Shown one piece after another: positions 1 through 25,507 of a stretch of DNA of 64,000 nucleotides. The translations under genes were made by a program, and so were the position numbers. Every line of letters starts with the position of its first letter. Position 1 is the stretch's first letter. The DNA comes from a virus: the IMG/VR virus record IMGVR_UViG_3300048029_000212, positions 1-64,000 of that record; one strand, given 5' to 3'. The notes beneath the pieces were generated by a model. The model was not told where the DNA came from, made no database searches, and saw nothing but the letters and a program-made list of their open reading frames with translations.

Positions 1-254
1 TCCAGTTTATCACACTTGCAGGATTCCACCAGACTAACTACTCTGTCTTTGATTTCGCAAACCGATACAAAGACGAAGGTATGTACGCATACTCGTTGTT
101 ACAAGAAGCAGAGTTTGCCGCAGAGTCGCGTGGATACACAGGAGCAAAACACCAACGTGAAGTGGGTGTCGGTTACTTCGATGCCATCACAACTACATTG
201 GGTTCTACGTCTACCGCAGCTATGACGGGTTCGACCGAAGAAGACCAGTTTTAA
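1..254 (+). CDS. 3' end of an unidentified protein (partial)
   Basis: An open frame enters from the left edge (codons from base 3) and stops with TAA at 254, giving 83 visible residues ending in TEEDQF. The visible part is soluble and rather polar, with no membrane segment. I do not recognise the family. The cytochrome gene starts 12 bases downstream, so the two may be co-transcribed. Confidence 0.6.
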
Positions 255-266
255 AAAGGAATAGTT

Positions 267-578
267 ATGAAAAATTTATTATTATCAATGTTACTAATCA
301 GTGCACCAGCATTTGCAGACGAAGATCGGTTTGAAGATGTTCGTGGCACATGGATGGTTTGTGCAGGTTGTCATGGAACAGAAGGTCAGGGCGTGGGTTC
401 GTTTCCCCCATTAGTAGGAAAGGACGCTGATTATATTATCGACGCTCTCTTATCATATAAGAATGGTGAGACACGTGGTCCATTATCTGGTCTTATGTGG
501 GGTCAAGCAAAAGGTTTGTCTGAAGGACAGATCGGTACGCTTGGTGTTTTCATTCAGGAAGGTCTACCATCAAAGTAG
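267..578 (+). CDS. Secreted c-type cytochrome (single heme)
   Basis: A 103-residue protein with an N-terminal signal peptide (hydrophobic stretch ending APAFA, cleavage near residue 17) and one heme-attachment motif CAGCH at residues 32-36. Met77, in a GLMWG context, is a good candidate for the distal axial ligand. Size and layout fit a small class I cytochrome c (c4/c553-like) that carries single electrons in the periplasm. Heme would have to be attached by the host maturation system. AAAAAGGAATAG upstream is a usable ribosome site. It is followed at once by a two-helix membrane protein. A cytochrome is unusual phage cargo; the di-heme peroxidase at 8086 is a possible partner. Confidence 0.85.
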   Translation: MKNLLLSMLLISAPAFADEDRFEDVRGTWMVCAGCHGTEGQGVGSFPPLVGKDADYIIDALLSYKNGETRGPLSGLMWGQAKGLSEGQIGTLGVFIQEGLPSK

Positions 579-602
579 ACAATTTATAGAGGGCCAGTGA
601 TA

Positions 603-941
603 ATGTTTAAGAGTGTTGGATTTGCAATTTACGATCTTTACAGATTTTTCTTTGATTTGAAAGTCAATCCACTGAGACACATTCCGAATGAACTTGTACA
701 GTTTATTCTCATGTTCTACTTGTCGGTGATGTGGTCAGTAGTGTTCACTTTCTGGGCAGGGTACACGTGGATGTATGGAATCTACAGTGTAGGTGGCCAC
801 CTTATGGTACTTGGTGCATTCTTTATCACTGTTGCTATATTCAGCGATGCGGAGAAGAATGGCCACCTGTGGGTACAACGTCCTAAGACACCCCCACTAC
901 CAGCACGCCGAGTCGCTTGGGATTTAGAAAAAGAAGGCTAG
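603..941 (+). CDS. Small membrane protein next to the cytochrome gene
   Basis: A 112-residue protein with two predicted transmembrane helices (about residues 30-50 and 60-80) and a proline-rich, charged C-terminus. I use the ATG at 603; an upstream GTG at 597 would add two residues. No family recognised and no heme motif. Its position right behind the cytochrome suggests, but does not show, a membrane partner role. Confidence 0.65.
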   Translation: MFKSVGFAIYDLYRFFFDLKVNPLRHIPNELVQFILMFYLSVMWSVVFTFWAGYTWMYGIYSVGGHLMVLGAFFITVAIFSDAEKNGHLWVQRPKTPPLPARRVAWDLEKEG

Positions 942-962
942 TTATAAACAGGAGTCTATATT

Positions 963-1181
963 ATGCCAGTAAAGTACAAGCAAAGTCAAGTCTACAAGAG
1001 CGCGATTGCGCGTTCGCGTAACACCGACAAGCATTACTATATGCACCAACTCGACAACACACAATTGTGGAACGAGTTCTTCAGTACAGGTAATAAGAAA
1101 CTAAAAAGAAAGATGCGCAATGAACTTGCAATGCGCGGATTTAGTCAGGAGGCAATCGCAGAGCGAGAGTCTTCAAGATGA
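963..1181 (+). CDS. Small basic protein, function unknown
   Basis: Seventy-two residues rich in Lys, Arg and Ser, with no membrane segment. It ends in an ATGA overlap with the next gene, a sign of translational coupling. An AGGAG-type site precedes the ATG. This style of small gene is common in T4-like marine phages; I do not know its role. Confidence 0.65.
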   Translation: MPVKYKQSQVYKSAIARSRNTDKHYYMHQLDNTQLWNEFFSTGNKKLKRKMRNELAMRGFSQEAIAERESSR

Positions 1182-1438
1182 GTTGGGATAAGTTAATACA
1201 GATCGCAGAGTCGCCTATTTCAAGAACAGGCAACGAAGTCTGGGACAAGACATTCAACGAGTGTTTCTGGGAAAATATGTCAACCATAGTGTGGAATCAT
1301 AACTGCATGTTTGAAGGCGACATCTGGATCGGTAAAGATGAAGAGTGTTCTTGGTGTGGCGGTACTGAAGAGACCGAAGGTCGCGAAATTGTTCATCATA
1401 GAATAATGGGAACTCTGTACGGAAATTTATATAAATGA
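1178..1438 (+). CDS. Hypothetical protein with a CxxC pair
   Basis: Eighty-six residues, acidic and Trp-rich. A CSWCGG motif near residue 62 followed by an HHR cluster near the C-terminus could bind a metal. The gene overlaps both neighbours by ATGA, so it is part of a coupled run from 963 to 2183. No known family recognised. Confidence 0.6.
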   Translation: MSWDKLIQIAESPISRTGNEVWDKTFNECFWENMSTIVWNHNCMFEGDIWIGKDEECSWCGGTEETEGREIVHHRIMGTLYGNLYK

Positions 1439-1590
1439 GTATAGGGATGTTGGGTCTTCTCGCAGTCTTTATGTGTCCTATGGTATTTGGCGGTATTACG
1501 ATGTACTACTCCCATAAAACCATACATAAAGAGACACTACATAGATGGAGAAAGAGTAAAGGTTTAACTTTGTCAGAGATGGAGGATTAA
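1435..1590 (+). CDS. 51-residue single-pass membrane protein
   Basis: The ATG overlaps the previous stop (ATGA) and the TAA overlaps the next ATG by one base. The product begins with a hydrophobic helix (about residues 3-24) followed by a basic tail. The tight coupling on both sides is the main support. Function unknown. Confidence 0.55.
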   Translation: MSIGMLGLLAVFMCPMVFGGITMYYSHKTIHKETLHRWRKSKGLTLSEMED

Positions 1591-2183
1591 TGACAGATAA
1601 TGATGTACGGTGGAATAAAATCACCGGAATGAAAGTAGGCGATACTTTGCCTGAAGCAACGTTTCAGACACGAGTACGTGATGATGAGATAGATGGTCCT
1701 AACCCATATCGTTGGGAAGAGACTACGATGGCTGACTACACAGAAGGTCGTCGTGTTGTAATCTTCTCATTGCCTGGCGCATTTACGCCAACATGTTCCA
1801 CTATGCAGTTACCGACATTCGAAGAGAAGTTTGATCAGTTTGTTGATCTTGGTATTGACGACATCTACTGTATGTCCGTGAACGACTCTTTCGTGATGAA
1901 CGCATGGTCACGTCAACAAGAACTCAAGCGAGTCAAAGTGATTCCAGATGGATCTGGTCACTTCACACGTGAGATGGGGATGCTTGTTGACAAAGACAAC
2001 CTAGGATTCGGATACCGTTCTTGGCGATACGCAATGGTCGTCACCGATGGTGTGATCGAGGCATTGTTCCGTGAAGCAAGTATCCGTGACAATGCGGATG
2101 ATGATCCGTATGAGATGACCACCCCTGAAAATCTACTTGGGTATTTGCGCAACGCGATACCACAAGAAGAAGAGGTGGCCTAA
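1590..2183 (+). CDS. Peroxiredoxin (Prx5-like)
   Basis: A 197-residue thioredoxin-fold peroxidase. The catalytic signature PGAFTPTCS lies at residues 62-70, giving Cys69 as the peroxidatic cysteine. Cys94 is the only obvious second cysteine nearby. Length and motif order match the Prx5/AhpE-like group, which reduces hydrogen peroxide or organic peroxides with thiol donors in the cytoplasm. There is no signal peptide. It is coupled by a one-base overlap to the gene before it, in the same run as the cytochrome. The glutaredoxin domain of the NrdA at 23513 could in principle share the same thiol pool. Confidence 0.88.
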   Translation: MTDNDVRWNKITGMKVGDTLPEATFQTRVRDDEIDGPNPYRWEETTMADYTEGRRVVIFSLPGAFTPTCSTMQLPTFEEKFDQFVDLGIDDIYCMSVNDSFVMNAWSRQQELKRVKVIPDGSGHFTREMGMLVDKDNLGFGYRSWRYAMVVTDGVIEALFREASIRDNADDDPYEMTTPENLLGYLRNAIPQEEEVA

Positions 2184-2186
2184 AGA

Positions 2187-2471
2187 CTAGACGATTTGTT
2201 GAACCTCACATGAGTTTCGCTTATCGTCTACTTCAATCACGATGCTACGGTCTTCGACGATGCGACGACCGTTGTTTTTTACCACGACTTTAGAGTCTGG
2301 TGAAATATTTAGATCACAGTTGTGAGATAACTTGACAGTCTCGTGATTTTTTGATATAATATGCACACTATCAGACGATATAAGTAGTTTATCATCTTTA
2401 CAGATAGTGACTGAGTTTGCAAGTGCCGCTGGTGTTGCTACCAACAGCAATAAAGTTAGTACTAGTTTCAT
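2187..2471 (-). CDS. Small exported protein, function unknown
   Basis: Ninety-four residues on the minus strand, convergent with the peroxiredoxin gene and only 3 bases from its stop. A clear signal peptide (hydrophobic stretch ending ALA at about residue 18) precedes a beta-rich domain with three cysteines. Probably periplasmic. It is one of few minus-strand genes in the left half. No family recognised. Confidence 0.6.
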   Translation of the reverse strand: MKLVLTLLLLVATPAALANSVTICKDDKLLISSDSVHIISKNHETVKLSHNCDLNISPDSKVVVKNNGRRIVEDRSIVIEVDDKRNSCEVQQIV

Positions 2472-2569
2472 TTGCTTTCTCCTGTCGTCTCACGACGACT
2501 TTTGTTGCCTCACGGCAGTTAATAGTATGACAGTTTTATTACACTGTACATATTATATATAAGTTTTTT

Positions 2570-2645
2570 TGGCGCGTAGCTCAGTTGGTAGAGCCGATGA
2601 CTGTTAATCATCTGGTCGCAGGTTCGAGCCCTGCCGCGCCAGCCA
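2570..2645 (+). tRNA. tRNA-Asn (GTT)
   Basis: Folds as a complete cloverleaf: seven-base-pair acceptor (TGGCGCG with CGCGCCA), anticodon loop CTGTTAA giving GTT, T-arm GCAGG/CCTGC with loop TTCGAGC, and an encoded CCA end. Confidence 0.95.
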
Positions 2646-2649
2646 CATT

Positions 2650-2734
2650 GCGAGAGTGGTGGAATTGGTAGACACGCTGGTTTTAGGTACCAGTGCCGCA
2701 AGGCGTGAGAGTTCGAGTCTCTCCTTTCGCACCA
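2650..2734 (+). tRNA. tRNA-Leu (TAG)
   Basis: Class II tRNA with a long variable arm. Acceptor GCGAGAG pairs with CTTTCGC, anticodon stem CTGGT/ACCAG encloses loop TTTAGGT (anticodon TAG), T-loop is TTCGAGT, and CCA is encoded. It starts 4 bases after tRNA-Asn. Confidence 0.95.
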
Positions 2735-2782
2735 ATATTATGATCAAGTGAAAAATTTACATAATAAAGTTTTCAAAAAGTG

Positions 2783-2812
2783 TTGACAAACTTCTCCAGA
2801 ATTTGGTATAAT
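2783..2812 (+). promoter_or_regulatory. Strong early sigma70-type promoter (cassette copy 1)
   Basis: TTGACA at 2783-2788, 18-base spacer, TATAAT at 2807-2812. An A-rich tract upstream resembles an UP element. It drives the HNH-methyltransferase pair. The downstream leader matches the other cassette copies, including the GATGAGAGAGA ribosome site. Confidence 0.85.
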
Positions 2813-2844
2813 GGTTACATAAATTGATGAGAGAGATTGTGAAT

Positions 2845-3270
2845 ATGTCTTCTGCTGCTATGAAAGAGAAGTTCTACAATGAGGAAAGAACCTTGCCTCT
2901 TTGCGTTAATGATGGTTGTGATAGAAATGTCGCAGTTCGTGAATGGAAGAACTGGTCGTTTAAGTCAGAGTGTAGTTCTTGCAGTAGTCGAAGAATCAAG
3001 ACAGGGGTGATGCGTGAAGGTGTGACTCAGCACAAGAAGACTTACTGTGAAAACGCAGATAGCCAACTTGGTTTTCCTTGTCCGGTACCGAAAGACGGTT
3101 GGGGGGGATTTTCCAACTCACTTGACTTAGATCATATAGATGGAGATCACTACAACAACGTGCCCGAAAATGTAAAAACTTTCTGTAAACTGTGTCACGG
3201 CCGGAAGTCTGTAGAAAATGGAGACTGCAACTCTCACAAATCTTCGGCGAGACGTATAGAGTCGTTATGA
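2845..3270 (+). CDS. HNH endonuclease-like protein paired with a methyltransferase
   Basis: A 141-residue protein with cysteine pairs at 43-46 and 114-117 and an HNH core around Asp96-His97 and the paired Asn104-Asn105, closing with a CKLCHG motif. I chose the ATG at 2845 because the GATGAGAGAGA before it is the same ribosome site used in the other early cassettes; the ATG at 2827 lies inside that site. The stop overlaps the methyltransferase start as ATGA. HNH proteins nick or cut DNA. Placed directly before a DNA methyltransferase it could be a restriction partner, a homing nuclease or a host-DNA nickase; the sequence cannot decide. Confidence 0.75.
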   Translation: MSSAAMKEKFYNEERTLPLCVNDGCDRNVAVREWKNWSFKSECSSCSSRRIKTGVMREGVTQHKKTYCENADSQLGFPCPVPKDGWGGFSNSLDLDHIDGDHYNNVPENVKTFCKLCHGRKSVENGDCNSHKSSARRIESL

Positions 3271-4091
3271 TTAATCAAATTCTTCATGGTGATTGCAAAG
3301 ATGTTCTGAAAACATTAGATTCTCAATCTGTTCATCTTACATGCACTTCTCCACCTTACTATAATGCAAGATCATATTCAGTGTGGCCTACCTATGAGTC
3401 GTATCTGGATTTTTTGCGAGATGTATTTAAAGAAGTGTTTCGAGTTACAAAAGACGGGAGAATGTGCGCTATTAACGTTTCTCCGGTGATACAGGCCAGA
3501 GAATCTAGATCTAAAGAAAGCTCTCGTTTGGGTATACCTTTCCACATGTTCTCTATTATGGAAGAAATGGGTTGGAAATATATTGATGATATAGTATGGG
3601 TGAAACCGGAAGGGTCTGCTTTGAATCGTAACGGAGGTTTCTATCAACATCGCAAACCAGTTGCATACAAACCCAATTTGGTTACTGAAAGCATTTTGAT
3701 TTTTCAAAAGCCGTGTGATTTCTTAATCGATAAAATTGTTAGATCGTATAGTGGAGAAATCTTAGATGAGTCTTTAGTATCAGATGGATATGAGAGATCC
3801 AATGTATGGAAAATTAATCCTGAAACTGCCTCCAAACATCTAGCACCATTTCCTAAAAAACTGAGCGACAATATTATATCTTACTATTCTTATGTCGACG
3901 ACCTTGTCTTGGACCCTTTTATGGGAAGTGGTACCACTGCGGTGTCTTGCTTAGACTTAGAGAGAAAATATGTAGGTATTGAAATTCATCAAGAATATAT
4001 TGATATGGCACAAAAAAGAATTCAATCCTTTAATCCTTTGCACCTACTTGCAAAAAATCGGATTGAGTCTACCAATCCGTTAGGAGTTTAA
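3267..4091 (+). CDS. DNA methyltransferase, beta class (N4-cytosine or N6-adenine)
   Basis: A 274-residue protein. The catalytic motif TSPPY is at residues 27-31 and the SAM-binding motif DPFMGSGTT at 216-224. Catalytic motif before SAM motif is the beta-class order, and the TSPPY form is typical of N4-cytosine enzymes, though some N6-adenine enzymes share it. Between them lies the variable target-recognition part. It is translationally coupled to the HNH gene upstream and shares its promoter. It probably modifies phage DNA at a short site, protecting it from host restriction or from the neighbouring HNH protein. Confidence 0.88.
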   Translation: MINQILHGDCKDVLKTLDSQSVHLTCTSPPYYNARSYSVWPTYESYLDFLRDVFKEVFRVTKDGRMCAINVSPVIQARESRSKESSRLGIPFHMFSIMEEMGWKYIDDIVWVKPEGSALNRNGGFYQHRKPVAYKPNLVTESILIFQKPCDFLIDKIVRSYSGEILDESLVSDGYERSNVWKINPETASKHLAPFPKKLSDNIISYYSYVDDLVLDPFMGSGTTAVSCLDLERKYVGIEIHQEYIDMAQKRIQSFNPLHLLAKNRIESTNPLGV

Positions 4092-4391
4092 ATGTCTAAG
4101 ACAGGACGTGGTGACCCTCAAGTGAGAGCAGACGGTCGCAATAAACCAGACAGAGAGTGGTGGCCCGAGAACTTTGATTGGTATCTGAAGTGGGCAGCAT
4201 CAATCATGATTTTAATTTCTCTGGCAATGCGATCTGCGGGCCCAGAATATCGCATGTATGACTTGACAATAGGGTTCGTAGGTATTATACTATGGACTTG
4301 GGTATCTATTATCTGGAAAGACCGCGCACTCATCATGTTGAATGCGGTCTCCGGATTTATGATTGCAACAACTATTTTGAGGGAGTGGTAA
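4092..4391 (+). CDS. Integral membrane protein, three helices
   Basis: Ninety-nine residues: a polar N-terminal 30 residues, then three hydrophobic segments (about 33-50, 56-74, 79-95). It starts directly after the methyltransferase stop and overlaps the next ATG by one base. No family recognised. Confidence 0.6.
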   Translation: MSKTGRGDPQVRADGRNKPDREWWPENFDWYLKWAASIMILISLAMRSAGPEYRMYDLTIGFVGIILWTWVSIIWKDRALIMLNAVSGFMIATTILREW

Positions 4392-4735
4392 TGAAAAACG
4401 TAAAAGATCTGAGAGCCGAAGGTTATGTTACTGAGGAAGAAATTCCTAAGTTCACACTAGACCTTCCGCCCAACTACAAGTTCAACGAAGATAAGTTGAT
4501 CGCAGAATTTGCGAGATACATTGACTCTACATATAATCAACACTACGCCAAAGAGAAGTTTCAGGCGACCGAATTTATTATTGATGGGGGGCACGGTACA
4601 GGATTCTGTATCGGTAATGTTTTAAAATACGCACAACGTTATGGGAAAAAGGGGACTCGTGACGATGCGCGAAAGGACTTACTAAAGGTACTTCATTATG
4701 CGCTTATTCAATTACACGTTCACGATAGCGATTAG
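4391..4735 (+). CDS. DUF3310-like protein
   Basis: 114 residues. The C-terminal half has the spaced pattern FCIGNVLKYAQRYGKKG then DARKDLLKVLHYA, which matches the DUF3310 family found in many phages, a small helical fold of unproven function. Start chosen at the TAATG overlap with the upstream gene. Confidence 0.7.
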   Translation: MKNVKDLRAEGYVTEEEIPKFTLDLPPNYKFNEDKLIAEFARYIDSTYNQHYAKEKFQATEFIIDGGHGTGFCIGNVLKYAQRYGKKGTRDDARKDLLKVLHYALIQLHVHDSD

Positions 4736-5078
4736 TTTACTCTTAACCGGATGTGCGACATCTGGTGTCACTAATGCGTACCGCTACGGTACGGATGATT
4801 ATAAGTTCCTAGAAAAGGAATATGAGAACTTGCATCCACAAGTTCACTTTGTTTTACTCAAAAACGAAGCCGAGTATAATTCAGCCAGACGACAGAATCT
4901 AGGCGTACAATGGGACACAGTGAGTGCATTCACTCTCTGGATTCCGGAAACCGGCGAGTGCACCGTGTACATAAAGGACCCACAGTGGCAGTGGGAACCT
5001 GAGTTGATTGGACACGAAGTGGCACACTGTATATGGGGGAGATACCATAGAGGCAAAGAAGGCCTCAGACCATATTAG
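4698..5078 (+). CDS. Lipoprotein with HExxH zinc-peptidase motif (paralogue 1)
   Basis: A 126-residue protein with a lipoprotein signal (LLTGC, lipidated Cys at about residue 19) and a C-terminal HEVAHCIWGRYHR. HExxH with a downstream Gly and His suggests a zinc metallopeptidase anchored in the outer or inner membrane facing the periplasm. The protein at 45727 has the same plan and the same C-terminal motif. The gene overlaps the one upstream by 38 bases, and its TAG stop shares one base with tRNA-Asp. A role in lysis or cell-wall remodelling is possible but not shown. Confidence 0.75.
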   Translation: MRLFNYTFTIAISLLLTGCATSGVTNAYRYGTDDYKFLEKEYENLHPQVHFVLLKNEAEYNSARRQNLGVQWDTVSAFTLWIPETGECTVYIKDPQWQWEPELIGHEVAHCIWGRYHRGKEGLRPY

Positions 5079-5154
5079 GAGCGGTAGTTCAGTTGGTTAG
5101 AATATCGGCCTGTCACGCCGAGGGTCGCGGGTTCGAGTCCCGTCCGCTCCGCCA
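5078..5154 (+). tRNA. tRNA-Asp (GTC)
   Basis: Acceptor GGAGCGG/CCGCTCC, anticodon loop CTGTCAC (GTC), T-loop TTCGAGT, CCA encoded. Its first G is the last base of the upstream TAG stop codon. Confidence 0.95.
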
Positions 5155-5170
5155 ACTTTGAGGAAAACTT

Positions 5171-5413
5171 ATGAGGTTTTTATTAGTTGCACTGTTGACA
5201 ACAGTGACCAGTTGTAGTACAATGAGTGAACAAATTGATAAAGGACTTTGTCTCAAGTGGGCAACCTTTATTCAAGAGGAACAAGAATGTGTTGGTGGTC
5301 GCGGTGTTGCGCAACAAATTTGCGTCGTGCGATATGTACCAAAAGCAAAGTGTTTAGTCTGGGAATGGCCAGAAGGAAGACCCGAAAATGGATCCGATAC
5401 AAGTTTGGAATGA
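5171..5413 (+). CDS. Small exported protein, probable lipoprotein
   Basis: Eighty residues. The N-terminus is a hydrophobic leader ending VTSC, an acceptable lipobox, so the mature protein may start at Cys15. Three or four further cysteines lie in the mature part. AGGAAAAC precedes the ATG. Function unknown. Confidence 0.6.
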   Translation: MRFLLVALLTTVTSCSTMSEQIDKGLCLKWATFIQEEQECVGGRGVAQQICVVRYVPKAKCLVWEWPEGRPENGSDTSLE

Positions 5414-5504
5414 GCTGGGATATATCGATGGTATTATGTTTACCATCTGGTTAGGTATCCTGTACTATGGGAAATGCTGGATTGACAGCAAATTTAAGGA
5501 TTGA
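5388..5504 (+). CDS. 38-residue membrane microprotein
   Basis: Starts inside the previous gene (26-base overlap) and stops 1 base before the next ATG. A single hydrophobic helix covers about residues 13-30. Support is the gene packing and the membrane segment only. Confidence 0.45.
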   Translation: MDPIQVWNELGYIDGIMFTIWLGILYYGKCWIDSKFKD

Positions 5505-5505
5505 T

Positions 5506-5703
5506 ATGCGAGGAAAGCATGTAGTCAAGCGCCGACGCGAAGGCGCACTCGATCGTCTTCAGGCGTCAACGTTCTTTGAGAAGAACGGCCGCACTGAACA
5601 ACAATGGCAGAAGCGTAAGGACAAGGAGATCGAGAGACTTGAGATCGCACTTGGAATTAAGCAAGGCGCTAAGAAACAACGCGAGGAGATAATCCTCGAT
5701 TAA
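5506..5703 (+). CDS. Small charged helical protein
   Basis: Sixty-five residues, very rich in Lys, Arg and Glu and predicted helical. I start it at 5506 (MRGKHVV) rather than at an earlier in-frame ATG inside the upstream gene, because of the 1-base spacing. Proteins of this look recur in marine T4-like phages; function unknown. Confidence 0.6.
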   Translation: MRGKHVVKRRREGALDRLQASTFFEKNGRTEQQWQKRKDKEIERLEIALGIKQGAKKQREEIILD

Positions 5704-5806
5704 GAGTTAGTCCTGAGATGACTCTAAACTCACTCTGGTCGTTACGCCCGTCTCCTGAGTATGAGGAAAACTGCTCCACACACAACACACACAAAAGGAG
5801 ACTATT

Positions 5807-6019
5807 ATGTCTAATACAAATCCATACGAACTTCGGTTCCAAATCTTTGAAACAGCAAGAAACGTCCTAACAGATGAGTACTGGGCTAAAGTAAATCGCC
5901 GAGAAGTCTTGATTGAGACAGGCGGCGTTGATACCATCCCAGAGTTTCCGACATATCCTACTATGCAAGATATCATGGAAAGGGTAAAAGTCATCAACGA
6001 GTTTGTTTCAAACAGTTAA
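5807..6019 (+). CDS. Conserved small T4-like phage protein
   Basis: Seventy residues beginning NPYELRFQIFETAR, a start I associate with a widespread family in cyanophage-type T4-like viruses. No catalytic motif. AAAGGAGA gives a strong ribosome site. It ends one base before tRNA-Pro. Confidence 0.7.
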   Translation: MSNTNPYELRFQIFETARNVLTDEYWAKVNRREVLIETGGVDTIPEFPTYPTMQDIMERVKVINEFVSNS

Positions 6020-6096
6020 CGGAGATTAGCTCAGCTTGGTAGAGCACTGCATTTGGGATGCAGGGGCCGTTGGTTCGAATCCAGCATCTCCGACCA
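6020..6096 (+). tRNA. tRNA-Pro (TGG)
   Basis: Acceptor CGGAGAT/ATCTCCG, anticodon stem CTGCA/TGCAG with loop TTTGGGA (TGG), T-loop TTCGAAT, CCA encoded. It begins immediately after a TAA stop. Confidence 0.95.
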
Positions 6097-6110
6097 ATTG
6101 AGGAAATGTT

Positions 6111-6272
6111 ATGATACACGAGTGGAAGATTTTTTACAAAGGTATGCAAGTAGGTCTCACCTACTCAATGACAGAGTACGGCGCACGAGAGCGATGGTAC
6201 AATAACCAGAGTACTAGTGCATCTAAATATTCAGGTCTGAACTTCTCAGACATCTTTGCAAAAAGGGTCTGA
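6111..6272 (+). CDS. 53-residue hypothetical protein
   Basis: ATG preceded by GAGGAAATGTT. The product is polar and Tyr-rich with no membrane segment. It sits between two tRNA genes. The next 103 bases hold only a weak GAGAG/CTCTC stem-loop. Confidence 0.5.
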   Translation: MIHEWKIFYKGMQVGLTYSMTEYGARERWYNNQSTSASKYSGLNFSDIFAKRV

Positions 6273-6375
6273 TTCCCCTATCCAAATAACTGAATCAGTG
6301 GTGCCCAGAAGAGCAGAGAGTCTCGTTCCTCTCTCAAATCAACGAACGAGTGGTACCGGAGGCTGGAAAGAATTG

Positions 6376-6452
<77 letters not shown>

Positions 6453-6456
6453 AAAT

Positions 6457-6531
6457 TGGGGTGTCGCCAAGTGGCAAGGCAGCGGGTTTTGATCCCGCCA
6501 TTCGGTGGTTCGAATCCATCCACCCCAGCCA
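6457..6531 (+). tRNA. tRNA-Gln (TTG)
   Basis: Acceptor TGGGGTG/CACCCCA, anticodon stem GCGGG/CCCGC with loop TTTTGAT (TTG), T-loop TTCGAAT, CCA encoded. Four bases after tRNA-Arg. Confidence 0.95.
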
Positions 6532-6547
6532 TATAATGAGGAATAGT

Positions 6548-6796
6548 ATGAGTTTTATTAGTGAAATGCAGAGACTGGAACAGAACATCAAAGAGTTGTC
6601 GCAGACATTCGATGCACTGCAAAAACAGGTTGAACGGTATCAGAACACACGAGGTGAACCGGAGTATCCTAACGAGTTGCGTGAACCAGACACTGTAGAT
6701 CTTGCAGATTCACATCCAAGACGATCGATTGATGAAATATCTCCACAATTGTGGGATGCTGTATCAAAGAGGTTCTACAGAGAACCCAAGTCATAG
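6548..6796 (+). CDS. Small coiled-coil protein
   Basis: Eighty-two residues. The first 45 have the heptad spacing of a coiled coil (LEQNIKELSQTFDALQKQ); the rest is acidic and polar. ATG follows ATGAGGAATAGT. Lies between tRNA-Gln and tRNA-Ser. Function unknown. Confidence 0.55.
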   Translation: MSFISEMQRLEQNIKELSQTFDALQKQVERYQNTRGEPEYPNELREPDTVDLADSHPRRSIDEISPQLWDAVSKRFYREPKS

Positions 6797-6801
6797 AATT
6801 A

Positions 6802-6889
6802 GGTGGGCTGGCTGAGTGGTCGAAAGCGATGGTCTTGAAAACCATTGAACCGAGAGGTTCCGTAGGTTCGAATCCTACGCCCACCGCCA
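6802..6889 (+). tRNA. tRNA-Ser (TGA)
   Basis: Class II tRNA. Acceptor GGTGGGC/GCCCACC, anticodon stem ATGGT/ACCAT with loop CTTGAAA (TGA), long variable arm, T-loop TTCGAAT, CCA encoded. Confidence 0.95.
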
Positions 6890-6897
6890 TTATTACA

Positions 6898-6914
6898 GCG
6901 GTTCCAGAAACCGC
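6898..6914 (+). other. Stem-loop after tRNA-Ser
   Basis: GCGGTT and AACCGC form a six-pair stem around a five-base loop. No T-run follows, so it may be a processing or weak pause site rather than a terminator. Confidence 0.4.
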
Positions 6915-6920
6915 AGTTAT

Positions 6921-6928
6921 TATAAATA
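6921..6928 (+). promoter_or_regulatory. T4-type late promoter
   Basis: Exact TATAAATA, 25 bases before the HNH gene at 6953. This is the -10 element used by T4 gp55-type late sigma with gp33 and the sliding clamp. Confidence 0.7.
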
Positions 6929-6952
6929 CTTCTAAACATAGGAGTATTTGAA

Positions 6953-7261
6953 ATGGCAGCAGCTAAAAACCCAAGAAACCAACACGGACCTAGAAGATTA
7001 GATGAAGATGTGTTTGTAGAGAATTCTACATACGCTAGACACAGACTGAAAGCAAGAATCATCAAACAAGAAATGATCTCGTATTCTTGTGATTGTTGTG
7101 GGATAGGACCAGAGTGGATGGGAAAACCAATGACTCTAGTCTTAGATCACATCAATGGGGTGAACAACGACAACAGACTAGAAAATCTAAGATTCGTTTG
7201 TAGTAATTGTGATTCTCAATTGCCTACATACAAATCTAGGAATAAGGCAAGCAATAACTGA
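6953..7261 (+). CDS. HNH endonuclease
   Basis: A 102-residue protein with a CDCCG knuckle at 46-50, an HNH core LDHINGVNNDNRLENLRF (His66, Asn72-74, Asn79) and a second CxxC at 83-86. This is the classic zinc-bracketed HNH fold of free-standing phage endonucleases. No DNA-binding AP2 domain is visible. It stands alone under a late promoter, which suggests either a homing gene or a nuclease acting on replicated DNA. It is not closely similar to the HNH protein at 2845. Confidence 0.85.
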   Translation: MAAAKNPRNQHGPRRLDEDVFVENSTYARHRLKARIIKQEMISYSCDCCGIGPEWMGKPMTLVLDHINGVNNDNRLENLRFVCSNCDSQLPTYKSRNKASNN

Positions 7262-7276
7262 CTACGCCATTATTTG

Positions 7277-7284
7277 TATAAATA
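7277..7284 (+). promoter_or_regulatory. T4-type late promoter
   Basis: Exact TATAAATA, 31 bases before the tagged kinase gene at 7316. Confidence 0.75.
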
Positions 7285-7315
7285 AATACATCTATCACCA
7301 ACAGACTGTATTACA

Positions 7316-8002
7316 ATGAAATCTTTTAAAACATTCCTAGACGAAGGTGTCAACGATCCAGCAATCTTCAAGGCGATCTTCCTTGCGGGTGGGCCAGGCT
7401 CTGGTAAGTCATTCATCGTCGGCAAAACTGGTTTGACCTCTATGGGTTACAAAGTTGTCAACTCCGATGACGCGTTTGAAGCTGCCATGAAGAAGGTTGA
7501 TATGGAGATGACTCCAGACAACATCTTCTCTCCGAAGGGTCAAGAACTTCGTGGTAAGGCAAAGAAGATTACTGGCAAAAAAGAGGAACGTTATCTGAAG
7601 GGACGCCTTGGTCTTGTCGTAGACGGTACTGGTAAAGATCCAGACAAGATTGCCGCGCAAGCAAAGAAGGTTAAAGAATTAGGTTACGATGTTGCGATGA
7701 TTTTCGTAAACACAGACCTTGATACTGCTATCAACCGTGATGCAAAACGTGCGCGTACTCTAGGCGCGAAAGGTGTTACTGAGTATTGGAAAGCAGTTCA
7801 GCGCAACGTCGGCAAGTTCCAACGCATGTTTGGTAAAGAGAACTTCTTGGTAGTTGATAACTCTGAAGGTAAGAACTACGAGAAAGAAACGTTAACTGCA
7901 TATCGTGATGCGAAGAAGTTTACGGACAAACCACACGGCGCGAAGGCCAAGCGTTGGATTGAAGTAGAGAAGCAAGCGATCAAACGCGTCAAAAATAGTT
8001 AA
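7316..8002 (+). CDS. P-loop kinase with capsid-targeting-like N-terminus
   Basis: A 228-residue protein. Residues 1-11 (MKSFKTFLDEG) resemble the capsid-targeting tag of T4 internal head proteins. The Walker A motif GGPGSGKS is at 25-32, followed by a conserved VNSDDAF and VVDGTGKD, the layout of zeta-toxin or polynucleotide-kinase type P-loop kinases. It probably phosphorylates a nucleic acid end or a small substrate with ATP. FLDE before Gly11 also fits the L-x-E cleavage rule of the T4 prohead protease. It has its own late promoter. Alternatives are a UDP-sugar kinase of the zeta-toxin type or a plain nucleotide kinase. Confidence 0.8.
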   Translation: MKSFKTFLDEGVNDPAIFKAIFLAGGPGSGKSFIVGKTGLTSMGYKVVNSDDAFEAAMKKVDMEMTPDNIFSPKGQELRGKAKKITGKKEERYLKGRLGLVVDGTGKDPDKIAAQAKKVKELGYDVAMIFVNTDLDTAINRDAKRARTLGAKGVTEYWKAVQRNVGKFQRMFGKENFLVVDNSEGKNYEKETLTAYRDAKKFTDKPHGAKAKRWIEVEKQAIKRVKNS

Positions 8003-8012
8003 TTATTCACAC

Positions 8013-8042
8013 TTGACAACCCCTAGCATAATGTAGTATACT
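8013..8042 (+). promoter_or_regulatory. Sigma70-type promoter of the peroxidase gene
   Basis: TTGACA at 8013-8018, 18-base spacer, TATACT at 8037-8042. It reads into the di-heme peroxidase from an intergenic gap, so that gene has its own host-type promoter. Confidence 0.75.
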
Positions 8043-8085
8043 TCTTATCGAAACTTGAAATAGAGTATTGAGAGGCTCTTATATT

Positions 8086-9498
8086 ATGAAGAAACTACTA
8101 ACTGTAGCTGTGTCTACGGCACTCCTGAGTGCATGTTCTGGCGGAGCAGATAACGCATCCGCCCCCGACCCTGTGGTCGTGACTCCCCCAACTGTAACAC
8201 CTGTTGATCCAGCAGTCGAGGCACGTGACAATCTACTCACGTTACTTGACTCCACATCAACGACAGGTTCATACGAAGAATACATCCTTCCCGACAGTGA
8301 TGACTTCGATAACATTCCGCAAGACCCAAGTAATCCTATTACTGCAGAGAAAGTTGCACTAGGTAAGTTAATCTATCATGAGACTGGTATCACTGAAGGC
8401 GACATTGCGTCCAGTGAAGGTACATTCTCGTGCGCGTCATGTCACAATGCCCAAAACGGATTCAAGTCTGGTATTCGTCAGGGTATAGGTGAAGGTGGTG
8501 TCGGTTTTGATCATCGCATGATCGCTGAGGGTGTCAATCCCGAAGACATCGATGTGCAACCTGTTGCAACACCCACTGTACTCAACACGGCATTCCAAGA
8601 AGTGATGTTGTGGAATGGTCAGTTAGGTAATGTGATTGCGGGTAATGTCAATGTTGGTATTGATCCCGATCGTCACTTCACAGAAGGTACTCCGAAAGAA
8701 GCAAACCTACGCAACTTTGCTGGTCTAGAGACACAAGCAGTTGCGGGTCTAGGTGTGCATCGTCAGGGTGACACAGATGATTCTATCCTGCGCACTAACG
8801 AAACTTATCGTGAGATGTTTGAAGCTGCCTACGGTGTTGCAGAACCCGACGATATGTTAGAGGCAACTGCACTAGCGATCGCCGCATACGAACGGACTAT
8901 TCTTGCGAATCAAGCACCCTTCCAAGCATACTTGAAAGGTGACGAAACTGCGATGACTGAATCTGAAGTCGCTGGTGCGGAAGTGTTCTTCGGTAAGGGT
9001 AACTGTTATGCGTGTCATAACGGACCTGCGTTGTCATCTCCCGTTGGTGCGATGGCAGACGAAGTGTTTATGACTGTCGGTTTCCACGATTTAGATATCT
9101 GGGAAGACACGGTCGGTGAAGTCAACGATGCGACTAGAGAGGGTCGTGGTGGATTCACTGGTGATGAGATGGAGAAGTTTGCGTTCAAAGTTCCGCCTCT
9201 TTACAACCTTATAGATACTACTGTATTCGGTCACGGTGCGTCGTTCTCTAGTGTAGAGGATGTCGTGCGATATAAAGTTGATGCGGTTCCCCAACACCCA
9301 CAAGTGGAGACGTATGACCTTGACTATCGGTTCACGCCGTTAGACTTGACCGAAGATGAGATTGCAAACCTTGTTGCGTTCCTTGAGAACGGTTTGCATG
9401 ATCCAGAGTTGATGCGATATGTGCCAGAGTCGTTACCAAGTGGCAACTGTCCTATCAACAACGATGAAGTGTCGCGTCAAGAACTTGGGTGCGACTAA
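8086..9498 (+). CDS. Di-heme cytochrome c peroxidase (CcpA/MauG family) lipoprotein
   Basis: A 470-residue protein. Lipobox LLSAC puts the lipidated cysteine at residue 17, followed by a Pro/Val-rich linker. Two heme motifs, CASCH at 116-120 and CYACH at 307-311, are spaced as in bacterial cytochrome c peroxidases, with the family words LGKLIYHE and TPTVLNTAF before and after the first heme. These enzymes reduce hydrogen peroxide to water with electrons from a small periplasmic cytochrome c. MauG enzymes share the fold and oxidise protein side chains, so the substrate is not proven. I start at 8086 (MKKLL), where the signal peptide begins. The gene is intact, stands alone between a sigma70 promoter and a tRNA region, and is very unexpected in a phage. 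Confidence 0.93.
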   Translation: MKKLLTVAVSTALLSACSGGADNASAPDPVVVTPPTVTPVDPAVEARDNLLTLLDSTSTTGSYEEYILPDSDDFDNIPQDPSNPITAEKVALGKLIYHETGITEGDIASSEGTFSCASCHNAQNGFKSGIRQGIGEGGVGFDHRMIAEGVNPEDIDVQPVATPTVLNTAFQEVMLWNGQLGNVIAGNVNVGIDPDRHFTEGTPKEANLRNFAGLETQAVAGLGVHRQGDTDDSILRTNETYREMFEAAYGVAEPDDMLEATALAIAAYERTILANQAPFQAYLKGDETAMTESEVAGAEVFFGKGNCYACHNGPALSSPVGAMADEVFMTVGFHDLDIWEDTVGEVNDATREGRGGFTGDEMEKFAFKVPPLYNLIDTTVFGHGASFSSVEDVVRYKVDAVPQHPQVETYDLDYRFTPLDLTEDEIANLVAFLENGLHDPELMRYVPESLPSGNCPINNDEVSRQELGCD

Positions 9499-23512: not shown

Positions 23513-25507
23513 ATGAAAGTAGATGTGAATTACGATCGCGATGATCTGTTAACAGACTATGCGATAGGTATGTTAAAAGATTTCTATATGATTGAGGGTG
23601 AAGAGTCGCCCCAAGATGCGTACGCAAGAGCTGCAGAAGCGTGGTCAACATATCAAGATCAAGTAGATCCGTATCTAGCGCAGAGGCTTTATGAATATGC
23701 CTCAAAGAAATGGTTTATGTTTGCGTCTCCGGTTCTGTCAAACGCACCCAAAGAAGGCGCGGACACTCGCGGACTTCCCATCTCTTGTTTTCTTACCTAT
23801 GTCCCAGACACACTTGAAGGACTGATTGAACACTCTTCGGAGTTGCGTTGGTTGTCCGTAATGGGCGGTGGTGTCGGTGGACACTGGGGAGACGTGCGTA
23901 CGGTCTCTGACATCGCGCCTGGCCCGATTCCGTTTCTACACACAGTAGATGCAGACATGATCGCGTATCGCCAAGGCAAGACACGTAAGGGGTCTTATGC
24001 GGCGTATCTGGATGTGCATCATCCAGACATCATGGAATTTCTAAACATTCGCATTCCTACAGGCGACGTACAACGTAAGGCGCTGAACATACACAATGCG
24101 ATCAACATCACCGATGAGTTTATGGCTGCGGTGATCAACAATACAGATTTTGACTTACGTGACCCGAAAGATGGTATTGTGAAAGATTCTGTCAATGCAC
24201 GTAAGTTATGGGAACGAATCCTTGAGGTACGTTTCCGTACGGGAGAACCATACTTGAATTTTATTGACACTGCGAATCGTGCGCTCCCAATGCCACTAAA
24301 GGAGAAAGGACTAAAGATTCACGGGTCAAACCTATGCAACGAGATTCACTTGCCGACAGGTCCAGACAGGACTGCGGTATGTTGTTTGTCATCACTAAAC
24401 TTGGAATACTATGATGAGTGGAAAGACACTAATATCGTGCGGGATCTTATTCGTATGCTGGATAACGTTCTCGAATACTTCATCGGTCATGCGCCAGATA
24501 GTATTTCCCGCGCCCGTTATTCGGCGGCACGTGAAAGAAGCATTGGACTTGGAGCAATGGGTTTCCATTCACTCCTACAGAAACACTTTGTTGCTTGGGA
24601 ATCTGACAAAGCCCGAGAAATAAATAATGTCGTGTTTGAACATATCAATCACGAAGCAAAAGAAGAATCAAGACTCCTTGCGAAAGAGCGGGGTGAATAC
24701 TCAGACGGTTTAGGTTCAGGGATGCGCAATGCCCATCTACTAGCAATAGCACCTAACGCGTCGTCGGGAGTCATCTTATCCACGTCACCATCAATCGAAC
24801 CATTGAAGGCATGTGCTTATACGCATAGAACTCGTGCAGGTTCGTTTTTGGTGAAGAACTCGTATCTAACGGCCCTACTCAAAGAGAAGGGTCAGGACAA
24901 CGAATCTACGTGGTCTAGTATCATTACCCGCAAAGGATCGGTTCAACACTTACCGTTCTTAAATGAAGGTGAGAAGGCGGTCTTTAAGACTGCACAAGAA
25001 CTGGATCAAAACTGGGTAGTGACACACGCGGCTGACAGACAACAGTACATCTGTCAGGGTCAGTCGGTTAATCTTTTCTTCCCGTCAGGAACACCGAAAC
25101 GTTATGTTAACAAGGTGCATTTCACGGCCTGGAGGAAAGGATTGAAAGGTCTGTACTATTTGCGCACAGAGGCAAAGTCTCGTGCGGAGACGGTATCAGA
25201 CAAAGTGGAACGGGTTGCGTTACAAGACGACAACCGTACCATACTTTACGGAAAAAAAGATTGTCCGTATTGTAAAATGGCCGCAGAGGAACTGTCGCTA
25301 CGCGGCATAGATTATGACTACGTTGACCTTGAGGAGATAAAGAAGTCTGCCGCAGAGGTTACAGGAAGAAAGGTCGAGACAGTTCCTCAAATTTATCTGG
25401 AAGGCAAGTACATAGGTGGTTATGAAGATCTTATGATGCATCTAAAGGGTGAAGTGGAGTACGAACCAAGTGACGGTGGCGACGAATGTCGGGCCTGCGA
25501 GGGTTAA
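23513..25507 (+). CDS. nrdA: Ribonucleotide reductase class Ia large subunit with built-in glutaredoxin
   Basis: A 664-residue NrdA. Catalytic hallmarks are visible: ISCFL (first active cysteine), NLCNEI (radical cysteine with Asn and Glu), and GLYYLRT (the paired tyrosines of the radical path). The N-terminal ATP-cone regulatory domain is absent. From about residue 576 there is a complete glutaredoxin domain with CPYC at 584-587 and the cis-Pro TVPQIY. The protein then ends in CRAC (659-662), the normal NrdA redox tail. So the glutaredoxin lies between the barrel and the tail, where it could reduce the tail directly. It makes deoxynucleotides for phage replication together with NrdB, the next gene. 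Confidence 0.95.
   Translation: MKVDVNYDRDDLLTDYAIGMLKDFYMIEGEESPQDAYARAAEAWSTYQDQVDPYLAQRLYEYASKKWFMFASPVLSNAPKEGADTRGLPISCFLTYVPDTLEGLIEHSSELRWLSVMGGGVGGHWGDVRTVSDIAPGPIPFLHTVDADMIAYRQGKTRKGSYAAYLDVHHPDIMEFLNIRIPTGDVQRKALNIHNAINITDEFMAAVINNTDFDLRDPKDGIVKDSVNARKLWERILEVRFRTGEPYLNFIDTANRALPMPLKEKGLKIHGSNLCNEIHLPTGPDRTAVCCLSSLNLEYYDEWKDTNIVRDLIRMLDNVLEYFIGHAPDSISRARYSAARERSIGLGAMGFHSLLQKHFVAWESDKAREINNVVFEHINHEAKEESRLLAKERGEYSDGLGSGMRNAHLLAIAPNASSGVILSTSPSIEPLKACAYTHRTRAGSFLVKNSYLTALLKEKGQDNESTWSSIITRKGSVQHLPFLNEGEKAVFKTAQELDQNWVVTHAADRQQYICQGQSVNLFFPSGTPKRYVNKVHFTAWRKGLKGLYYLRTEAKSRAETVSDKVERVALQDDNRTILYGKKDCPYCKMAAEELSLRGIDYDYVDLEEIKKSAAEVTGRKVETVPQIYLEGKYIGGYEDLMMHLKGEVEYEPSDGGDECRACEG

What the first reader, a model, noticed from the sequence alone, without database searches (positions are those of the whole stretch)
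267..9498. A phage-encoded peroxide-reducing set: cytochrome c, di-heme peroxidase and peroxiredoxin
Three intact redox genes lie within 9.2 kb: an exported single-heme cytochrome c (CAGCH), a lipid-anchored di-heme cytochrome c peroxidase (CASCH, CYACH) and a cytoplasmic peroxiredoxin (catalytic Cys69). In bacteria a small cytochrome c is the electron donor of the di-heme peroxidase. Together they would remove peroxide on both sides of the inner membrane and could keep respiration going in infected cells. The motifs are seen; the shared function is my inference. I know of no described phage system of this kind.
Basis: partly seen in the sequence, partly recalled or inferred. Interest (0 to 1): 0.9.

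Follow-up and report, generated by a model that had tools for sequence, protein, structure and literature searches.

The report
Marine phages encode a di-heme peroxidase
A group of marine T4-like viruses of bacteria carries, and by its sequence maintains, a gene for an exported heme enzyme of the bacterial peroxidase family, usually alone and only sometimes with a cytochrome c or a peroxiredoxin, so the viruses may keep the respiration of infected cells safe from peroxide.

Summary
The record is a 160-kb, near-complete T4-like phage. What does not hold is the 'set'. The peroxidase is the conserved piece: 61 IMG/VR loci plus the complete Kyanoviridae phage C48C1 (there 'hypothetical'), 16 of 20 close relatives in a survey not selected on it, dN/dS about 0.1, and in 20 of 39 distinct phage copies its own near-perfect sigma-70 promoter at a fixed distance. 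One Halieaceae chromosome holds a copy nested inside the phage clade. The cytochrome c is optional: the record's own two ends are two alleles, one with and one without it. It is linked to the neighbouring membrane gene (597-941), in bacteria and other phages too. The peroxiredoxin is a known cyanophage family. The peroxidase is not a classical CcpA: its distal His and axial Met are replaced by conserved Glu136 and Lys397, in phages and bacteria alike. Best reading: an early, host-derived periplasmic peroxide reductase fed by whatever cytochrome c is present. Peroxidase activity is inferred. No report of a phage di-heme peroxidase was found.

The parts
3..254 (+). C-terminal part of a phage isocitrate lyase (full copy at record 158638-159879)
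   Evidence: matches the C-terminus of the full-length ORF at the other record end, PF00463 4.8e-94
267..578 (+). optional exported monoheme class I cytochrome c
   Evidence: PF00034 3.8e-5; CxxCH and Met77 invariant; absent from the allele at the record's other end
597..941 (+). two-TM membrane protein, genomic partner of cytochrome c in other phages and in bacteria
   Evidence: homologs near cytochrome c in other phage clades and within 2 kb of it in 8 of 23 Halieaceae-family genomes with both
1590..2183 (+). Prx5-type cytoplasmic peroxiredoxin, catalytic Cys69, known cyanophage family
   Evidence: PHROG 2281 1.5e-65; 96 phage records
8013..8042 (+). sigma-70-like promoter TTGACA-18-TATACT of the peroxidase gene
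   Evidence: 11 of 12 consensus bases; same place in 20 of 39 phage copies, 0 of 76 cell copies
8086..9498 (+). di-heme peroxidase lipoprotein (CCP/MauG superfamily), ATG start, lipid-anchor Cys17, hemes at CASCH and CYACH
   Evidence: PF03150 6.5e-24; Foldseek BccP 3o5c 9.6e-12; dN/dS about 0.1

Best explanation
The core is a phage gene for an exported, lipid-anchored di-heme peroxidase taken from marine gammaproteobacteria. It is transcribed early by host RNA polymerase from its own strong promoter (inferred from sequence), exported by Sec, lipidated on Cys17 (Ser at +2 suggests the outer membrane), and loaded with two hemes by the host's cytochrome c maturation machinery. Electrons from the host bc1 complex, carried by a host cytochrome c or in some strains by the optional phage cytochrome c, enter the C-terminal heme and reduce hydrogen peroxide at the N-terminal heme, so peroxide is removed in the periplasm and the respiratory chain of the infected cell keeps running. 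The peroxiredoxin, where present, does the same job in the cytoplasm with thiols, as in cyanophages. The three genes are independent, mix-and-match cargo with a possible common theme, not one fixed system. Shown: presence, family, selection, origin, optional cytochrome c. Inferred: expression time, location, chemistry, benefit.
For: Family and fold; both heme motifs and inter-heme Trp176 invariant in 39 viral and 79 cell copies; purifying selection, dN/dS 0.03-0.13; presence in 16 of 20 loci whose downstream exonuclease is at least 80% identical, 12 of 37 at 70-80%, 0 of 6 below, in a survey not selected on the peroxidase; the complete named phage C48C1 carries it; tree inside the gammaproteobacterial branch with a 33-row phage clade at 100 support; own promoter in 20 of 39 phage copies at 42-45 bp from ATG against 0 of 76 cell copies and 3.5% of random windows. 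Cytochrome c optional; its dS between this phage and L036 is 0.14 against 0.81 for the neighbouring membrane gene and 1.58 for the peroxidase, so it has moved between phages recently.
Against: No biochemical data. The residues that define the studied CcpA enzymes are replaced (distal His by Glu136, axial Met by Lys397, catalytic Glu not conserved), so the subfamily, cellular members included, may do another oxidation. Host is unknown. The AlphaFold model is only moderate (pLDDT 69, poor around the N-terminal heme at 104-163) and holds no heme. Promoter matches are not expression data, and the promoter needs only two changes of state on the tree, so its 20 occurrences are not independent.
Confidence: 0.62

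Rival explanations
1. The three genes form one dedicated phage peroxide-defence system in which the phage cytochrome c is the specific donor of the phage peroxidase.
For: All three occur together here and probably in the relative made of contigs L035 and L011; peroxiredoxin and peroxidase also lie within 3-5 kb in a separate phage lineage, L072/L078.
Against: Peroxidase alone in four phage records of 97-151 kb; cytochrome c plus peroxiredoxin without peroxidase in two records of 94 and 146 kb; cytochrome c polymorphic inside this population and linked to the membrane gene 597-941 rather than to the peroxidase.
Confidence: 0.1
2. The di-heme protein is a MauG/MbnH/BthA-like oxidase that uses peroxide to modify another protein or small molecule, and the phage uses it to alter a host envelope protein.
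For: Best NCBIfam scores are MauG-like families; distal His is missing as in MauG; Tyr396-Lys397 sit at the MauG Tyr294 position; fold matches MbnH 6e1c almost as well as BccP.
Against: All three NCBIfam MauG-like models are far below cut-off (112.6 of 340, 106.8 of 362.85, 98.3 of 443.85); the aligned residue is Lys, not Tyr; no shared partner gene next to the cellular copies, whose neighbours are housekeeping genes.
Confidence: 0.2
3. The cytochrome c is not for peroxide at all: with the membrane protein 597-941 it supports respiratory electron flow (an extra carrier to the terminal oxidase) in infected cells. This concerns the cytochrome c only and can be true together with the best explanation.
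For: Cytochrome c and the membrane gene are close neighbours in other phage clades and in Halieaceae-family genomes; 354 IMG/VR loci carry relatives of the cytochrome c, and nearly all fetched ones lack the peroxidase in the stretch held.
Against: The membrane gene stays in relatives without cytochrome c; no oxidase gene was found beside it.
Confidence: 0.5
4. Assembly or binning artefact: bacterial genes wrongly joined to a phage contig.
For: The record does break at a strain bubble.
Against: Dozens of independent contigs, several over 130 kb, and the complete circular phage C48C1 hold the gene in the same place before the exonuclease.
Confidence: 0.01

Closest known systems
Bacterial di-heme cytochrome c peroxidases (CcpA; Shewanella BccP 3o5c, Neisseria CcP 6qkn, Pseudomonas 1eb7)
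   Same: fold, two CxxCH hemes, inter-heme Trp, export
   Different: distal His replaced by Glu136, axial Met by Lys397, catalytic Glu not conserved but His225-Arg226 near-invariant, insert of about 35 residues after LWNG, C-terminal Cys pair, lipid anchor
MauG / MbnH (6e1c)
   Same: fold; no distal His; scores similar to CCP
   Different: well below NCBIfam cut-offs; Lys instead of Tyr at the aligned ligand position; no substrate gene nearby
Marine 'cytochrome-c peroxidase' type lipoproteins of Alteromonadaceae, Granulosicoccaceae and Bacteroidota (no characterised member known to me)
   Same: about 41-54% identity over nearly full length and the same conserved residues: the phage protein is a member of this subfamily
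   Different: phage copies form their own clades and many have an early-type promoter
Phage peroxiredoxin PHROG 2281 of cyanophages and pelagiphages
   Same: the window's peroxiredoxin is a member
   Different: nothing notable
Phage auxiliary genes for respiration reported in papers read here (viral cbb3 oxidase, PMC3474794; viral SoxD, PMC8190135)
   Same: phage-borne respiratory or heme proteins
   Different: neither is a di-heme peroxidase

Membership tests
CCP/MauG superfamily (PF03150) | profile match over cut-off and fold | tested here: met
   85.7 bits against 25.6; Foldseek 66 PDB matches at E<=0.001, those listed all CCP/MauG
CCP/MauG superfamily (PF03150) | two CxxCH heme sites and inter-heme Trp | tested here: met
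   invariant in 118 sequences; Trp role assigned by alignment
Classical CcpA | distal His on the N-terminal heme (reductive activation) | tested here: not met
   aligns with Glu136, E or D in all 118
Classical CcpA | axial Met on the C-terminal heme | tested here: not met
   ungapped alignment puts Lys397 there; Lys in 39/39 viral and 77/79 cell copies; not checked in a structure
Classical CcpA | peroxidase activity with cytochrome c as donor | not testable with these tools
   needs purified protein
MauG (TIGR03791) | NCBIfam cut-off | tested here: not met
   98.3 of 443.85
MauG (TIGR03791) | axial Tyr on the C-terminal heme | tested here: inconclusive
   aligned residue is Lys397, but Tyr396 is next to it
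MauG / MbnH | substrate protein gene nearby | tested here: not met
   cell neighbourhoods are varied housekeeping genes
MbnH (TIGR04039) | NCBIfam cut-off | tested here: not met
   106.8 of 362.85
Class I cytochrome c | CxxCH, axial Met, profile over cut-off | tested here: met
   PF00034 25.4 against 21.3 bits; C32, C35, H36, M77 invariant
Prx5-type peroxiredoxin / PHROG 2281 | profile match and PxxxTxxC catalytic Cys | tested here: met
   1.5e-65; Cys69
Auxiliary metabolic gene | host-derived, kept by selection in real phage genomes | tested here: met
Auxiliary metabolic gene | changes host metabolism in infection | not testable with these tools
   no culture at hand

The most novel reading that the evidence does not exclude
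Marine T4-like phages carry an early-expressed envelope peroxidase of an unstudied subfamily with a Lys-ligated electron-transfer heme, so the infecting virus rewires the host's periplasmic respiratory chain to reduce peroxide, and has given the enzyme back to a host chromosome.
Probability: 0.35. Interest if true: 0.8.

Novelty: new variant of a known kind. Interest (0 to 1): 0.6.

Why it matters
The best known metabolic genes of marine T4-like phages act in photosynthesis, carbon and nucleotide metabolism. A di-heme peroxidase kept by selection and given its own early-type promoter would mean that peroxide at the cell envelope limits phage growth in the sea, and makes that testable. It would also give a first clue to the function of a widespread marine peroxidase subfamily with altered heme ligands.

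Tried and rejected
Foldseek against BFVD: no match. Considered that the closest cell copy L137 is a misbinned phage contig: rejected, since alaS, lysC, csrA and tRNA-Ser lie beside it. Looked for a partner gene of the peroxidase in bacteria: none shared. Looked for malate synthase to go with the isocitrate lyase: none in the record. Tried to trace phage C48C1 in papers by name and accession: nothing. The four Salmonella/Escherichia hits are about 25% identical; two lie in 0.5-Mb records under a bacterial di-heme peroxidase and two in 10-kb unannotated records; not counted as phage relatives.

Full report
Observation. The window is the first 64 kb of a 160,050-bp virus record. It encodes RNR, baseplate hub and tail tube cap, a gp32-like protein, UvsX and a DnaB-type helicase, so it is a T4-like phage. 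The three genes are intact. Families: cytochrome c PF00034, peroxiredoxin Redoxin and PHROG 2281, di-heme protein PF03150. The peroxidase start is best put at ATG 8086.

Distribution of the peroxidase. There are 61 IMG/VR loci and one named phage, C48C1 (Kyanoviridae, complete and circular, 156,191 bp), where it is annotated 'hypothetical protein'. To avoid selection bias I collected loci by the downstream exonuclease gene and asked whether the peroxidase stands before it: 16 of 20 when the exonuclease is at least 80% identical, 12 of 37 at 70-80%, 0 of 6 below 70%. It is therefore a clade trait, with more distant phage copies at 50-55% identity. dN/dS is 0.03-0.13.

Origin. In a tree of 118 proteins all phage copies lie in the gammaproteobacterial branch with Alteromonadaceae and Granulosicoccaceae. 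The main phage clade has 100% SH-aLRT support and contains one cell copy, L137 from a Halieaceae MAG, nested inside (support 94-98). That contig carries alaS-lysC-csrA-tRNA-Ser (read from the ORFs; tRNA), so it is a chromosome. Only this one of 140 genomes searched in its family has the gene. A phage-to-host transfer is the simplest reading, and it makes such gammaproteobacteria the first host candidates; the host is not shown.

Regulation. In 20 of 39 distinct phage copies a promoter with 11 or 12 of 12 sigma-70 consensus bases stands 42-45 bp before the ATG; none of 76 cell copies has one, and 3.5% of random 150-bp windows of the same phage loci do. On the tree this needs two changes of state, so it is one or two events, then kept. 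The record has 32 such promoters, few of them in the structural block. Early promoters of T4-like phages are of this type (established knowledge), hence early expression is inferred.

Chemistry. Conserved in phage and cell copies alike: CxxCH with His120, CxxCH with His311, Trp176, Gln217, His225, Arg226, His383, Tyr396, Lys397, lipid Cys17, C-terminal Cys455/Cys469. Alignment to solved enzymes puts Glu136 at the distal His and Lys397 at the axial Met (Tyr in MauG/MbnH). Loss of the distal His suggests an always-open peroxide site without reductive activation; this and Lys ligation are inferences. The AlphaFold model (pLDDT 69, pTM 0.75) matches BccP, MbnH and Neisseria CcP but is poor around the N-terminal heme.

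The cytochrome c. It is optional. In relatives the isocitrate lyase gene runs straight into the membrane gene (L004, L012, L013, L023, L025, L028). The record itself shows both states: bases 1-127 repeat 159626-159752 exactly, inside isocitrate lyase, then diverge; the start continues into cytochrome c and the membrane gene, the end directly into the membrane gene. Exact 127-base sharing looks like an assembly-graph branch (the same length joins contigs L035 and L011), so two strain alleles probably coexist. The dS of the cytochrome c to L036 is 0.14 while that of the membrane gene is 0.81 and that of the peroxidase 1.58: recent transfer. Relatives of the cytochrome c occur in at least 354 IMG/VR loci, and nearly all fetched ones lack the peroxidase in the stretch held. 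The membrane gene 597-941 has homologs near cytochrome c in those phages and within 2 kb of it in 8 of 23 Halieaceae-family genomes that have both, far more than chance by a rough estimate. So cytochrome c and this membrane protein, not cytochrome c and the peroxidase, are the linked pair.

The peroxiredoxin belongs to a family known from cyanophages and pelagiphages (96 phage records). It is present in some peroxidase phages and absent in others (three changes on the tree), including a separate lineage where it lies 3-5 kb from a peroxidase (L072, L078).

Literature. Ten full-text searches found no phage di-heme peroxidase. Viral cbb3 oxidase (PMC3474794), SoxD with or without its cytochrome motifs (PMC8190135) and aceBA in a genome with T4-like structural genes (PMC5332604) are the nearest reports. 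Most subscription papers and all preprints were out of reach.

Verdict. Genes confirmed; shared three-gene system not supported; a phage di-heme peroxidase under selection, with its own promoter, is new as far as could be checked.

Noticed in passing
record 158638-159879 (L136:14638-15879) and window 3-254: Phage isocitrate lyase (PF00463 4.8e-94) just upstream of the cytochrome c site, without malate synthase; also in C48C1 and four related contigs. aceBA in a T4-like genome is reported in PMC5332604.
   Followed up: partly
window 1-127 and record 159626-159752: The record's two ends look like two strain alleles that branch after an exact 127-bp repeat; the genome is probably near-complete and circular, though IMG/VR does not class it so.
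   Followed up: yes
record 155946-156320; L036:5545-5919: An ORF that reads by eye as an IscU-like Fe-S cluster scaffold near the isocitrate lyase and cytochrome c genes; not profile-tested.
   Followed up: no
window 597-941: Small two-TM protein family without Pfam, PHROG or NCBIfam match, shared by several marine phage clades and bacteria, often near cytochrome c; function unknown.
   Followed up: partly
L137:5836-7335: Halieaceae chromosome copy of the peroxidase nested in the phage clade, beside csrA and tRNA-Ser; a likely phage-to-host gift, with an amplified Gly-Asn-Ser repeat after the lipobox.
   Followed up: partly
window 23513-25507: NrdA with a C-terminal thioredoxin-like domain (phrog_22, 1.8e-13), a possible reductant for the peroxiredoxin.
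   Followed up: no
L044:9830-10476: In another phage clade the cytochrome c sits just after nrdA/nrdB-like genes and directly before a glutaredoxin-like gene (by eye).
   Followed up: no
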